Source: Pseudomonadota bacterium
Lineage (GTDB): Bacteria; Pseudomonadota; Alphaproteobacteria; G022571365
Assembly (NCBI GenBank): GCA_022571365.1
Contig: JACZXZ010000001.1
Coordinates: forward strand, 1-64,000
DNA length: 64,000 bases
Direction: 5' to 3'
Below the pieces are notes generated by a model that was given only the letters and a program-made list of their open reading frames with translations, searched no databases and was not told the origin of the DNA. This document shows, in pieces, positions 53,987 through 58,805 of the stretch (position 1 is the first letter of the stretch; every line of letters begins with the position of its first letter). The position numbers were made by a program, and so were the translations under genes.

Positions 53987-55810
53987 TCACCGTCGCCGCC
54001 GCTTGAGCACGTACATGCGCATCAGGCCATAGCCCTTGGCGGCGGGCATGTGGCCGACGTACTCGCAGGTGAGCGACGCATCGCCGTCCAGCGCCAGGCC
54101 TGCCGCGAACGGCTCGGTGACGTAGACGTTGCCTTCGGGCGTGGCGGGCTCGAGGCGCGCCGTGCGGGTGACGTGGCTGCCGAAGTAACCCGAATCCTTG
54201 ACCACGTAGTCATAGCCCTCGAACACCGGTCCGACATGGGCGCCGACGCGCAGCGCCAGATGCGCCGGCAGGCCGAGCGCCTTCAGGTCGATAACCCCCA
54301 TCGCCGCTTGCAGATCGAGCGCCAACTGCGCCGCGACCGGCGCGTCGCTGGCCACCACGAACAGCCCGTCGCCCCAGGTATTGCGGTACAGGACGTCCGA
54401 GCCATAGCGGTCGAGAACCGCGCCCAGGCTGCCCATCACCTCCTTGTGAAACACCGGAAGCTGAGGTTCGCGCAGTTTGCTGAATCCTTTGAAGTCGCTG
54501 AACAGCATCGCGCGGATCGCTCGCTCGTGCTCGGAAAAGCCGGGCGATGCCACCGGTTGTCGCACGGTCCGACGGACGGCCCTCACGGCCGCTGCGGTGG
54601 GGGCTGCCACGTCGATGACGTGGGATCTCATGCCGATGCTGCGCCAAAACGCCACGTCGGTCGCGGTACCTCCCTCACCGCCGGCCTCTTTGCCGTCCCA
54701 GACGGCCGCCTGTTCGACCTCCGCGTCGAGGAAGGTGGCGCGGAGCAGCGCGAGTCCCATGGCCAACCGCGCGGCGTAGGTGAACAGCAGGTCGTCGCCC
54801 ATGTAGCTGTCCTCGGTGGCGTAAGTGATCGAGGTTGCCTTGGCCAGGCAGTCGTCGAAGCGCCGGCTCCAGCCAGGACCGCCCGGCTTGACCGAGATGC
54901 GTTTGAACTCGTCCTTGTCGAATGGCAGGACCACGTGAAGTTCCGCGCTACTCGACAGCAGCGTTTCGGCGAACAGGATGTCGGCGCCGCAAGCCAGTGA
55001 GCCATAGCCAAATCCGACCGACCCCTCATCCAGATGGGCCGCGATTCGCTGCGCCACCGGGTGCTCTGATTCGGCGGGAAAGCGCCCGGGCGCGCCTGGC
55101 GCCGAGATCATGTGCCCCAGGAAGGTGATGACTCGCGGCGGCGTGAGCGGCGCCAGAATTGCCGGGTCGATGGCTCTCTCCGCACAAATGAGGCGCAGTT
55201 GCCGGCGCGTTGTCGCGAGCGCAGCGTAGTCGCCGCCATGGGCTGCCGCTGCCCGCTCCAGGGCGGCGCCGGCATTGTCCAGGTCATCGAGCAGCAGCGC
55301 GGCCTCCGCCTCCGTGGCGGCCCGGTAGTAGGCCTTTCCAGGATCAGCGAGGCTGGTCCTCGATAAGGCGTCCAGCACCCTGCGGGCGAGATCGGTGGCT
55401 CGTGCCGGCTTGCCGGCGAGCAGCCACATGGTCGCCGCGTTGACGCCCGGGTAATAGTCGCCCGTGCGGTCGAAAACCACCTCGTAGAGGCCGGCGGTAA
55501 TCACTGCGCGCGATGCCCGCTCAGCCCCTTCGGCCTCCAGCGCGTAGTCCTTTTCCAGTCGGGCGCCCAGCGCGGAAATGTCCACTTCCGGCCGCCCGGC
55601 TAGGCCGTATTCGTCAAACCGCGCCCGCGCCTGCTCCGTCGCCCCGCTTCGCGCCAGAGTCCGCACCGCGAGATACCTCAGCCCCAGGTGATCCGGGTGA
55701 GCCTCCAGGCCTCTGTTGGCAAGATCGTAAGCGGTAAGGAAATCGCCCGCGCGCTCGACGCCTTCGACCTTAGCGACCCACTCTTCGGCGGAGAACGTCT
55801 GCTCAAGCAT
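53987..55810 (-). CDS. three-module protein: N-terminal TPR-like (TRAFs-binding-like) region, central SLOG-like domain, C-terminal class III nucleotide cyclase-like domain
   Basis: ITFLGHMISAPG...GYGSLACGADILFAETLLSSSAELHVVLPF (SLOG-like); AMLFSDFKGFSKL...RNTWGDGLFVV...RVGAHVGPVFEG...YFGSHVTRTARLEP (cyclase homology domain). Confidence 0.8.
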   Translation of the reverse strand: MLEQTFSAEEWVAKVEGVERAGDFLTAYDLANRGLEAHPDHLGLRYLAVRTLARSGATEQARARFDEYGLAGRPEVDISALGARLEKDYALEAEGAERASRAVITAGLYEVVFDRTGDYYPGVNAATMWLLAGKPARATDLARRVLDALSRTSLADPGKAYYRAATEAEAALLLDDLDNAGAALERAAAAHGGDYAALATTRRQLRLICAERAIDPAILAPLTPPRVITFLGHMISAPGAPGRFPAESEHPVAQRIAAHLDEGSVGFGYGSLACGADILFAETLLSSSAELHVVLPFDKDEFKRISVKPGGPGWSRRFDDCLAKATSITYATEDSYMGDDLLFTYAARLAMGLALLRATFLDAEVEQAAVWDGKEAGGEGGTATDVAFWRSIGMRSHVIDVAAPTAAAVRAVRRTVRQPVASPGFSEHERAIRAMLFSDFKGFSKLREPQLPVFHKEVMGSLGAVLDRYGSDVLYRNTWGDGLFVVASDAPVAAQLALDLQAAMGVIDLKALGLPAHLALRVGAHVGPVFEGYDYVVKDSGYFGSHVTRTARLEPATPEGNVYVTEPFAAGLALDGDASLTCEYVGHMPAAKGYGLMRMYVLKRRRR

Positions 55811-56111
55811 GGATGGCTCCTGTGGGCGGCTGACCGAAGCCGCCGCAACATCGCCTCAAGGCAGGGATCATAGCGCGGGCATCGGCTGGCGCAATCGGCC
55901 GTGGCGCGCCGGTGTTTTCGAACCCCGCGACGGAGTCGTTACACACCTATGCTGCCGGCTTGGCCGGTGCCTTGAAGCGAGGGGCGGGTCCCCTCAGACG
56001 AGCCTACGCGCAGCCCGCTGCCGATCCGGCTCGTCGATGACGACTTGAGGCGTGTCATGTCGGGCCTCGCGTTGTAGGCTTGTCGGCGTCCATTTTTAAG
56101 GGGGATCAGTC

Positions 56112-56810
56112 ATGCGCCGTCGGTCCGCCGCCCTGTTCGTGCCTGTGCTGCTTCTATGGCCAACCGCTGACTTCGGCCCCTCCGACATGTTGACCGTCCC
56201 GGCAATCCTTGCGGCGGAAACATGCACCGGGTTTGCCTGTCCTGAGCTTGCGGGTCACGTGTGGCAGGTGCCTTCTGGGATCGGCAGCGAAGAGGAAAGC
56301 AGTGACAGCATCGATGCCGACGGGGACGGGGTTCCCGACGATCGGGACCAATGCGTTGGGGCGATTCCCGGAGCGAGCGGCGCGGATGCGACCGGGTGCC
56401 CGACGGATTTTGACCCTTATGCCAAACTGAGTTTTCAAGACGACAAGCAGAGACGTTGGTACCGGCGGTTCTGGACGGGCGATTGCGACAACCTCAGCTT
56501 CTTCACCTGCCTGCCGGGCAGGCCGTACTGGTACGATGTCCTCAAGCGGGCCCTGGCCAATGTGCCGGCGGGTGATTTGGGCCGCCTGACGAACCGGCTG
56601 TGGTCCCTGGGCCGCCTGATCGGCTATGAATGGGCCAAGGAAAACGATATCCGCAGGATAGACACGGACGATCTGCAAGTCTGGAGCGGGGCCTTGACCA
56701 CTGCCAGCGACCTGGACAGGACCATCGACCGGATCAAAGCGGAGGCGATGGAGAAGTTGAGCGCCCCGACCGGGATCGGCGGCGCGGATGGTAACCTCGA
56801 CCAGAGTTAG
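56112..56810 (+). CDS. hypothetical secreted protein with one thrombospondin type 3-like Ca-binding motif
   Basis: N-terminal signal-like segment; DADGDGVPDDRDQCVGAIPGASGADATGCP. Confidence 0.65.
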   Translation: MRRRSAALFVPVLLLWPTADFGPSDMLTVPAILAAETCTGFACPELAGHVWQVPSGIGSEEESSDSIDADGDGVPDDRDQCVGAIPGASGADATGCPTDFDPYAKLSFQDDKQRRWYRRFWTGDCDNLSFFTCLPGRPYWYDVLKRALANVPAGDLGRLTNRLWSLGRLIGYEWAKENDIRRIDTDDLQVWSGALTTASDLDRTIDRIKAEAMEKLSAPTGIGGADGNLDQS

Positions 56811-56978
56811 CTGACGTGACTGGGAAAGCGAGATAGGGCGCACTCGCCCCGGCCGCTTTCACCTCAAGCGGGAGCGAACATGAAACCGTGGCGTCGCAAG
56901 CATCGGGTGTCGAATCGAGTGGCGCCGGGGGACGCCGAGCATCCGCGCGGTCCATGAGCTTTGAAACAAGAGCTGCGC

Positions 56979-58805
56979 CTAGCGCGTTTGAAACAGCTTG
57001 GTTAGCGCGAGGATGATCATGACGGCGATGAACAGAAGGCCGAGCCGGTAAAAGATAAGGCAGCCGAATGCGAATATCAGAAAAGCGATAAGGTGATTGA
57101 GGCGCGGCCATTTCATCGGCCAGAAATCCATGTCGTCCAGACGATCCAGGCATTCTTCTCTGGAAAGTTTCGTCAGATGGGAAATGTCCGCCCCCTCGCT
57201 TTCCAGGTAGGACCGCAGTTCGTTTCGGCTTTGCCGGGCGGCGAAGTTGAGAACGTAGACGGGCCCGAACAAAACCATCAGGGCCAGAACAAAACCAAGG
57301 AAAATGGCCATCGCACTGGTGAAATTACCGGCGCCGCCGACTGTAAACAGGGTCGCCGCCAGCCGGGACAGGCCCGGCCAAGACACGCCTGCGGCGAAGA
57401 GGAAATCGAAGGCGGCTTTGATTTCGCCAAAAGAGAACTCGAGAATATCCGGTGCGTCGGTTCGCAAGTACAGATTTTGAATATGCATCATGTAGAAAAT
57501 GAAAAATACGATCATGGATACGTAGGAAGAATTCTTGAAAAATAGCTGAAAGGCCTGAAATCCACGTCGAGTGTCGTTCGAATTCACGTCTGGAATCAGA
57601 CGAACAACTTTGCTTTGTCTTGCATATCTATAGATCATGTTCGAGAGCGCAAAGAGGAAGGCGTAGAAACTCAGAATTATCGCAAGGCTCATCCCCTGGG
57701 CCAGGTAGGCAGCCAGACTGAATAAGGCGTTCGCGGTGGGTGACACCTCTCTGCCGGGGGCGGTGAGCAACGCCGCGACTGACCAGTCCATTTCGTCGAA
57801 ACCAGGTGGAAACGCGCCGTCCATAAGCGGGCCGCCGGTCATGAAGTACCATTCGGTCATGCACTGCGCGAATGAGATGAGAGACAACAGCAGCGCCCAT
57901 TTGGCGCTGTTGTTCACGACGTTCCGCCAATCCCGAAAGATCGTCTCTTCGCTGACCGGCCGCCACTGCTGGCCAACCACCATATTGTGGCGGACGAGCT
58001 GGTGCAGCACGGTCTCCACGTTTTGAAAGGTGACCAGCATCAAGAAGATGATGGCGGGAAACGCCGCGACATAGGTCACTGACCAATTGATCGCCCAGAC
58101 AAAACCTATCTCCTTGCGGAAAGGGCTGCCGTCATCGGCGGTCAGCTCAGCCGGATAGAATGCGACGCCAACCAGGAAGCTTGCCACGACAAGGAGGAAG
58201 CCAAGCAGGATCGCACCGAAAAAAACGAACTGGGGCGAAACCTCCTGAGCTCGCCAGACCAGCTTCGCGATCTTGCTGGCCGCCTTGGCAATGGGCCGCT
58301 CCGTGGCAATGCGGTCGGCTTCGGCGATTTCCTGCTGGAAGCGGTCTTCCGCCTGAGGCTGGGATTCCTTGGGCGGCGCGTCTCGCTCGACCTCAGCTTC
58401 AGCCTTCCCCGAGGGACGGCTTATGATCCTTTCGACCGTCGCCAGGAATCGCAGGAATTCGGGATGGTGCAGGTTCTCGTGCCAGTCGGCCAGGCGCGCC
58501 GCCTGTATCGGCCTGAAGGCGAGGGGAATTGGGATGTCGTCGATGAGAACCGGGACGAGGATGTCCCGGTTTGCGGCTTCATTTGCTTCCGCCTTTATCC
58601 AGCGTGAGGTCACCGAGTACTTGGACCATACAACGATGACGCAACTTGCGGCGTTCAATGCCGCCTCGATAACCTCGTCGTACGATTTGCCGGGGGGAAT
58701 TTCCTTGTCCCACCAGACGGACCAACCGTTCTGTTCGAGGGCTTCCACGAGTACCTGCACCCGCGGCTGGTCCTGGCTGGCGTAGCTGATAAAGATGTCG
58801 CTCAT
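56979..58805 (-). CDS. N-terminal TIR domain protein with multiple C-terminal transmembrane helices
   Basis: MSDIFISYASQDQPRVQVLVEALEQNGWSVWWDKEIPPGKSYDEVIEAALNAASCVIVVWSKYSVTSRWIKAEANEA; then about 7-8 hydrophobic helices. Confidence 0.92.
   Translation of the reverse strand: MSDIFISYASQDQPRVQVLVEALEQNGWSVWWDKEIPPGKSYDEVIEAALNAASCVIVVWSKYSVTSRWIKAEANEAANRDILVPVLIDDIPIPLAFRPIQAARLADWHENLHHPEFLRFLATVERIISRPSGKAEAEVERDAPPKESQPQAEDRFQQEIAEADRIATERPIAKAASKIAKLVWRAQEVSPQFVFFGAILLGFLLVVASFLVGVAFYPAELTADDGSPFRKEIGFVWAINWSVTYVAAFPAIIFLMLVTFQNVETVLHQLVRHNMVVGQQWRPVSEETIFRDWRNVVNNSAKWALLLSLISFAQCMTEWYFMTGGPLMDGAFPPGFDEMDWSVAALLTAPGREVSPTANALFSLAAYLAQGMSLAIILSFYAFLFALSNMIYRYARQSKVVRLIPDVNSNDTRRGFQAFQLFFKNSSYVSMIVFFIFYMMHIQNLYLRTDAPDILEFSFGEIKAAFDFLFAAGVSWPGLSRLAATLFTVGGAGNFTSAMAIFLGFVLALMVLFGPVYVLNFAARQSRNELRSYLESEGADISHLTKLSREECLDRLDDMDFWPMKWPRLNHLIAFLIFAFGCLIFYRLGLLFIAVMIILALTKLFQTR

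What the first reader, a model, noticed from the sequence alone, without database searches (positions are those of the whole stretch)
53987..58805. Candidate nucleotide-signalling/conflict locus: TPR-SLOG-like-cyclase protein near a multi-pass TIR membrane protein
Seen: a minus-strand gene with a TPR-like N-terminus, a SLOG-like centre (GHMISAPG...SLACGADILFAE) and a class III cyclase-like C-terminus lies about 1.2 kb from a minus-strand TIR protein with about 7-8 TM helices; a plus-strand secreted protein lies between them. Established: class III-type cyclases paired with TIR or TM effectors define Pycsar anti-phage systems, and SLOG and TIR domains recur in nucleotide-dependent conflict systems. 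Inference: this could be a sensor/cyclase and membrane TIR effector pair of a different architecture. The TIR protein has no cyclic-nucleotide-binding domain that I can recognise, so direct coupling is unproven.
Basis: partly seen in the sequence, partly recalled or inferred. Interest (0 to 1): 0.72.

Follow-up and report, generated by a model that had tools for sequence, protein, structure and literature searches.

The report
Sensor-cyclase paired with TIR receptors
The bacterium carries a gene for a three-part protein (sensor repeats, a nucleotide-binding domain and an unusual cyclic-nucleotide synthase) whose relatives in many bacterial phyla repeatedly sit beside immune-type TIR proteins, which suggests a little-studied signalling pair that may link NAD-based and cyclic-nucleotide messengers.

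Summary
The cyclase protein (607 aa) is TPR-S + SLOG-fold + class III cyclase. The TIR protein (608 aa) is a TIR domain fused to an RcgA-like multi-pass membrane domain. The association is not chance at family level. Among the 80 best relatives of the cyclase, fetched by homology to the cyclase alone, 35 have a TIR gene within 5 kb; only 1 of 150 other class III cyclases from 26 of the same genomes does. In 17 loci the partner gene is immediately adjacent on the same strand, gap -49 to 101 bp. The pairing recurs across several phyla with many TIR architectures. All 47 TIR domains examined keep the catalytic Glu. No TIR partner scanned has a cyclic-nucleotide-binding domain, so it is not a Pycsar. 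The SLOG family also occurs in NADase-like TPR-S proteins and SLOG-SLATT effectors. I favour TIR product -> TPR-S/SLOG -> cyclase (inferred, not shown). Caveats: 36 of 81 loci lack a recognised partner; in this window the genes are 1.17 kb apart with an opposing gene between, this TIR's membrane half is unique, and no defence island is evident. TPR-S conflict systems were described before, in a paper I could not read.

The parts
53987..55810 (-). TPR-S - SLOG - class III cyclase protein, 607 aa
   Evidence: 305 relatives confirmed by tblastn in genome contigs
55145..55789 (-). TPR-S helical repeat domain, residues 8-222 (12 helices)
   Evidence: PF20308 E 1.7e-6; AlphaFold model
54611..55141 (-). 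SLOG-fold domain, residues 224-400; motifs GH, RFP, YGSLACGADILFAE, LPF, VWDG, GGT
   Evidence: AlphaFold pLDDT 95.5; Foldseek: ShosA, DprA, LOG, TRPM2; profile matches SLOG-SLATT and DrHyd-TPR-S-SLOG proteins
54533..54592 (-). flexible linker, residues 407-426
   Evidence: pLDDT < 50; least conserved part
53999..54526 (-). class III nucleotide cyclase domain, residues 429-604; metal-site D439 and D481 and R552 kept; N477 at the base-specifying Lys/Glu position; T548 at the catalytic Asn position
   Evidence: PF00211 E 5e-9; Foldseek GC-A, Cya2, CyaB; column counts over 81 proteins; alignment to 3et6
56979..58805 (-). TIR + multi-pass membrane protein, 608 aa
58431..58805 (-). TIR domain, residues 1-125, with S67/W69/E73 (catalytic-Glu motif)
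   Evidence: TIR_2 E 4e-25; Glu kept in 47 of 47 TIR domains aligned, this one included
56982..58421 (-). RcgA-like membrane domain (about 5 strong hydrophobic segments)
   Evidence: NF047336 E 4e-13; 23-28% identity to membrane proteins of Rhizobium/Paracoccus plasmids; no relative in 385 genomes of the class
56112..56810 (+). intervening gene on the opposite strand, secreted, Asp-rich repeat (DADGDGVPDDRDQC); probably not part of the pair
   Evidence: no family, absent from the 80 loci

Best explanation
The two genes belong to a recurrent two-component nucleotide-signalling module. A (usually membrane-anchored) TIR protein senses a stimulus through its variable second half and uses its catalytic TIR domain to convert NAD+ into a small signal (inferred). 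The partner protein binds that signal through its TPR-S and/or SLOG domain and this switches on its C-terminal class III cyclase (inferred), which makes a cyclic nucleotide of unknown base. In some lineages a CRP-type cNMP receptor beside the cyclase, or a SLOG-SLATT membrane effector, would read the output. Shown here: the domain composition, intact catalytic metal and Arg residues of the cyclase, the catalytic Glu of the TIRs, and repeated operon-type linkage across phyla. Not shown: any ligand, product, direction of signalling or phage phenotype.
For: 35 of 80 cyclase loci have a TIR domain within 5 kb; TIR density is 0.11-0.16 per kb over 0-3 kb upstream, against about 0.02 or less per kb in most bins beyond 6 kb. 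Control: 1/150 other class III cyclases, Fisher p 5.6e-18. In 7 genomes the only TIR_2 protein is the one beside the cyclase. 17 same-strand neighbours with gaps of -49 to 101 bp and 7 divergent pairs. At least 16 gains/losses of the TIR label on the cyclase tree, so many independent pairings. TIR Glu 47/47. 28 TIR partners have a TM helix right after the TIR, 25 with more K/R on the TIR side, a receptor-like layout. The SLOG family also occurs in a DrHyd-like TPR-S-SLOG protein (L116), in SLOG-DUF4231-SLATT effectors next to cyclases (L073, L135) and as a stand-alone SLOG in a TPR-S/patatin locus (L136). CRP genes beside the cyclase in L048, L058, L061, L086, L105 and L142. Precedent: ThsB TIR product recognised by the SLOG of ThsA (PMC9503650).
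Against: 36 of 81 loci (several on short contigs) show no recognised partner. In the window the genes are 1168 bp apart with an opposing gene between, so they are not one operon. The membrane half of this TIR protein is not found beside any other family cyclase. A TM after the TIR is also common in unpaired TIR proteins (7 of 12). ThsA is not among the top 50 structural matches of the SLOG domain. No ligand or product evidence exists.
Confidence: 0.48

Rival explanations
1. Pycsar-like direction: the TPR-S/SLOG part senses infection or stress, the cyclase makes a cyclic nucleotide, and this (or direct contact) activates the TIR protein as NAD+-depleting effector.
For: Cyclase + TIR gene pairs with this logic exist (Pycsar, PMC11224242). 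TIR catalytic Glu is conserved. SLATT and STAND proteins take the partner slot in some loci, as effectors do elsewhere.
Against: No cNMP-binding domain in any of the TIR partners scanned, whereas PycTIR carries an N-terminal CNBD. TIR partners carry receptor-like second halves (WD40, TPR, STAND, membrane).
Confidence: 0.24
2. The cyclase is a stand-alone signalling gene in this genome and its nearness to the TIR gene here is coincidence.
For: About half of family loci have no partner; gap of 1168 bp with an opposing gene; the genome holds a second TIR protein on another contig and two further class III cyclases; unique membrane half of the TIR protein; no defence genes around.
Against: Family-wide linkage to TIR genes. 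With 2 TIR genes in 2.3 Mb, the chance of one lying that close to a given gene is roughly 0.5% (own estimate), though the site was chosen because the two were near.
Confidence: 0.17
3. The cyclase domain is a pseudo-enzyme that only binds a nucleotide or dimerises, and the protein is a regulator of the TIR protein.
For: The transition-state Asn is Ser/Thr in 74 of 81 members and the base-specifying positions are neither AC- nor GC-type. One relative next to TIR and CRP genes (L127/L142) has a C-terminal part that no longer matches the cyclase profile.
Against: Both metal Asp and the catalytic Arg are kept in essentially all members; the cyclase is the most conserved domain; CRP receptors lie next to it in several loci.
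Confidence: 0.11

Closest known systems
TPR-S (PF20308) conflict systems with NAD+-derived signals (Burroughs and Aravind 2020, J Bacteriol; from memory, paper not held)
   Same: TPR-S domain, SLOG, TIR and SLATT/DUF4231 partners; TPR-S proposed there as sensor of NAD-derived signals
   Different: here TPR-S-SLOG is fused to a class III cyclase instead of a DrHyd/NADase-like domain; I cannot tell whether that paper already lists this architecture
Pycsar (PycC + PycTIR/PycTM)
   Same: class III-type cyclase gene paired with a TIR or membrane protein
   Different: extra TPR-S and SLOG sensor domains, different active-site residues, TIR partner without CNBD; one of five family cyclases scanned matches PADLOC PycC, and only through the cyclase domain at E 2e-7
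Thoeris (ThsB TIR + ThsA SIR2-SLOG)
   Same: TIR protein beside a SLOG-bearing protein; possible TIR-product-to-SLOG signalling
   Different: the switched output would be a cyclase, not a SIR2 NADase; SLOG closer to DprA/LOG/ShosA by fold; TIR partners membrane-anchored
RcgA family of rhizobial conjugative plasmids (NF047336)
   Same: membrane domain of the window TIR protein
   Different: the Rhizobium relative I read has no TIR domain

Membership tests
Class III nucleotide cyclase | cyclase homology domain fold and Pfam match | tested here: met
   PF00211 E 5e-9; Foldseek Cya2, CyaB, GC-A
Class III nucleotide cyclase | two metal-binding Asp and catalytic Arg | tested here: met
   D439 81/81, D481 80/81, R552 81/81
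Class III nucleotide cyclase | catalytic Asn and purine-specifying Lys/Asp (AC) or Glu/Cys (GC) | tested here: not met
   position 548 is S/T in 74 of 81; N477 in 79 of 81; position 541 mostly N/T/S (alignment to 3et6). Base specificity unknown
TPR-S domain family | match to PF20308 above its cut-off | tested here: met
   29.0 bits against cut-off 27.6
SLOG superfamily | Rossmann-type SLOG fold | tested here: met
   Foldseek ShosA, DprA, LOG, TRPM2, E 3e-4 to 3e-3, TM 0.4-0.54; no Pfam family
Pycsar | effector with cyclic-nucleotide-binding domain | tested here: not met
   window TIR protein and all TIR partners scanned lack PF00027
Pycsar | PycC-type cyclase (PADLOC model) | tested here: not met
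   window protein no match; of four relatives only L074, weakly, over the cyclase domain
Pycsar | pyrimidine cyclase product | not testable with these tools
   needs an enzyme assay
Thoeris | TIR protein + SIR2-, macro- or TM-type ThsA effector | tested here: not met
   partner protein has TPR-S, SLOG fold and cyclase; no SIR2 or macro domain
Enzymatic TIR | catalytic Glu in the SxW...E motif | tested here: met
   E73; 47 of 47 aligned TIR domains
Anti-phage defence system | protects against phage | not testable with these tools
   no phage assay; no defence-island context noticed in the window

The most novel reading that the evidence does not exclude
A two-messenger relay: a transmembrane TIR receptor makes an NAD-derived signal, the TPR-S/SLOG part of the partner reads it, and an atypical class III cyclase converts it into a cyclic-nucleotide output read by CRP or SLOG-SLATT proteins. 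This would join the NAD-signal and cNMP-signal branches of bacterial immunity in one pathway.
Probability: 0.33. Interest if true: 0.85.

Novelty: new variant of a known kind. Interest (0 to 1): 0.62.

Why it matters
TIR/SLOG (NAD-derived) and cyclase/CNBD (cyclic mononucleotide) signalling are treated as separate immune branches in bacteria. A widespread protein that fuses NAD-ligand-type sensor modules to a class III cyclase and sits in operons with TIR proteins would link them. The tight Arenimonas-type operons give small, testable two-gene constructs, and the conserved but non-canonical active site raises the question of which cyclic nucleotide it makes.

Tried and rejected
Pycsar membership rejected (no CNBD in partners; no or weak PADLOC match). 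Viral origin: no hit in viral contigs or phages. SLOG by sequence: the A2 profile finds nothing in PDB sequences and no Pfam family; only fold comparison worked, and the whole-protein Foldseek search was swamped by cyclases. A co-conserved role for the secreted gene 56112-56810 rejected: absent from the other loci. Conservation of the window TIR's membrane half with the cyclase: none found. 'Membrane anchoring is specific to paired TIRs' rejected: 7 of 12 unpaired TIRs also have a TM after the TIR. My first TIR profile had strand errors in its seeds and was rebuilt. The key prior paper on TPR-S is not in the library; text searches for the architecture found no paper describing it.

Full report
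OBSERVATION. The cyclase protein, 53987-55810(-), 607 aa, carries TPR-S (PF20308, residues 27-128) and a class III cyclase domain (PF00211, 434-603). The AlphaFold model of the whole protein (pLDDT 86.8, pTM 0.86) shows twelve TPR-like helices (8-222), a Rossmann-type domain (226-400), a disordered linker (407-426) and the cyclase. The Rossmann domain matches no Pfam family convincingly in any of 69 relatives. Modelled alone with 69 sequences (pLDDT 95.5), it matches ShosA, DprA, LOG and TRPM2 best, all SLOG-fold proteins; TM-scores are modest (0.4-0.54). The TIR protein, 56979-58805(-), 608 aa, has a clear TIR_2 domain (E 4e-25), then a membrane part with about five strong hydrophobic segments that resembles RcgA (NF047336, E 4e-13).

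CYCLASE ACTIVE SITE. Over 81 family members both metal Asp (D439, D481) and the Arg (R552) are kept. The position that is Lys in adenylate and Glu in guanylate cyclases is Asn (N477, 79 of 81). The Asp/Cys position (541) is mostly Asn/Thr/Ser, and the transition-state Asn position (548) is Ser/Thr in 74. The mapping was checked on the alignment to the solved guanylyl cyclase 3et6. The active site is thus intact in its metal part but non-canonical in its base-reading part, so I do not name a product.

CO-OCCURRENCE. A scan of genome contigs with the cyclase family alignment found 305 relatives; the best 80 were kept, selected by homology to the cyclase only. A TIR profile found TIR domains within 5 kb in 35 of the 80, concentrated in the first 3 kb. 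As a control, of 150 other class III cyclases in 26 genomes that carry the family, 1 has a TIR_2 hit within 5 kb; Fisher p is 5.6e-18 against 35/80. The 26 genomes were chosen with many TIR-positive loci among them, which makes the control harder rather than easier. In seven genomes the only TIR_2 protein is the one beside the cyclase. Partner genes (TIR, DUF4062-STAND, SLATT) are immediately adjacent and on the same strand with gaps of -49 to 101 bp in 17 loci, and divergent upstream in 7. On the cyclase tree the TIR label needs at least 16 changes, so the pairing arose or was lost many times across Pseudomonadota, Actinomycetota, Verrucomicrobiota, Acidobacteriota and Chloroflexota.

PARTNER TYPES. 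TIR + one TM + small C-terminal domain (L032, L033, L035, L038, L071), TIR-WD40 (L031, L034, L057, L088), TIR-TPR (L052, L093), TIR-STAND with TPR (L041), STAND-WD40 with an N-terminal TIR by my own profile (L080), SIR2-TIR (L087), TIR-BioY-like membrane (L104). Other loci have DUF4062/STAND proteins (L036, L045, L049, L076) or a SLOG-DUF4231-SLATT protein (L073). All 47 TIR domains examined keep the catalytic Glu. 28 have a TM helix right after the TIR, 25 with more positive charge on the TIR side, which suggests a cytosolic TIR and an outward second half. Unpaired TIR proteins often have such a helix too (7 of 12), so this is not specific. CRP-type cNMP receptors lie next to the cyclase in L048, L058, L061, L086 and L105 and in L142.

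WHERE ELSE THE SENSOR PART OCCURS. The same SLOG family is found in L116, a TPR-S-SLOG protein with a different, DrHyd-like N-terminus in place of the cyclase (my reading of its sequence; Pfam names only TPR-S), as a stand-alone protein in a Rhizobium plasmid locus with SLATT, patatin and TPR-S genes (L136), and in the SLOG-DUF4231 effector-like proteins beside cyclases (L073, Caballeronia plasmid L135). So TPR-S-SLOG looks like a portable sensor module attached to different signal enzymes or effectors.

MECHANISM. The sensor module on the cyclase is of the kind linked to NAD-derived signals. TIR domains make such signals, and a TIR product recognised by a SLOG domain is the established logic of Thoeris (PMC9503650). 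The TIR partners lack any cNMP-binding domain, unlike PycTIR (PMC11224242). I therefore favour TIR -> TPR-S/SLOG -> cyclase. This direction is inference; the reverse is the main rival.

LIMITS. 36 of 81 loci have no recognised partner, some because contigs end. In the window itself the genes are 1168 bp apart with an opposing gene between, the TIR membrane half has no relative in 385 genomes of the class and only distant plasmid relatives, the one read having no TIR, and neighbours are housekeeping and transport genes. The window pair is therefore less certain than the family pair. TPR-S conflict systems were described by Burroughs and Aravind (2020), which I could not read; TPR-S itself is a named Pfam domain. 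I therefore rate it a new variant of a known kind, with the caveat that this architecture may already be listed there.

Noticed in passing
G111:C63:203116-204523 (genome of L093): A different, canonical class III cyclase lies about 1.1 kb from a TIR_2 domain; possibly a Pycsar in a genome that also holds the TPR-S-SLOG-cyclase family.
   Followed up: no
L052, L063, L065 (Opitutaceae and relatives): Rows of several TIR genes lie in tandem beside the cyclase; one of these genomes (G105) holds 18 TIR_2 matches. Looks like local expansion of TIR receptors.
   Followed up: no
L136:4446-12321 (Rhizobium leguminosarum plasmid): Locus with CAP12/Pycsar-type TIR protein, stand-alone SLOG, two TPR-S proteins, DUF4231-SLATT and patatin; an apparent TPR-S conflict locus without a cyclase.
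   Followed up: partly
L138:3221-10494 (G148): Patatin-like gene, DrHyd-like gene, DrHyd-TPR-S-SLOG gene and a further TPR-S gene in a row.
   Followed up: partly
L142:5732-10189 (G269): TIR gene, small gene, TPR-S-SLOG protein whose C-terminus no longer matches the cyclase profile, and a CRP-family gene: possible decayed cyclase kept in a multi-gene set.
   Followed up: partly
L099:8809-9988 (Arenimonas daejeonensis): The TIR gene beside the cyclase is interrupted by a TGA stop in frame.
   Followed up: no
window 56112-56810 (+): Secreted protein with a DADGDGVPDDRDQC motif like calcium-binding type-3 repeats; no family found.
   Followed up: no
L087, L098, L101: Metagenome bins titled 'Bordetella parapertussis' hold this family; the name of these environmental bins is doubtful.
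   Followed up: no
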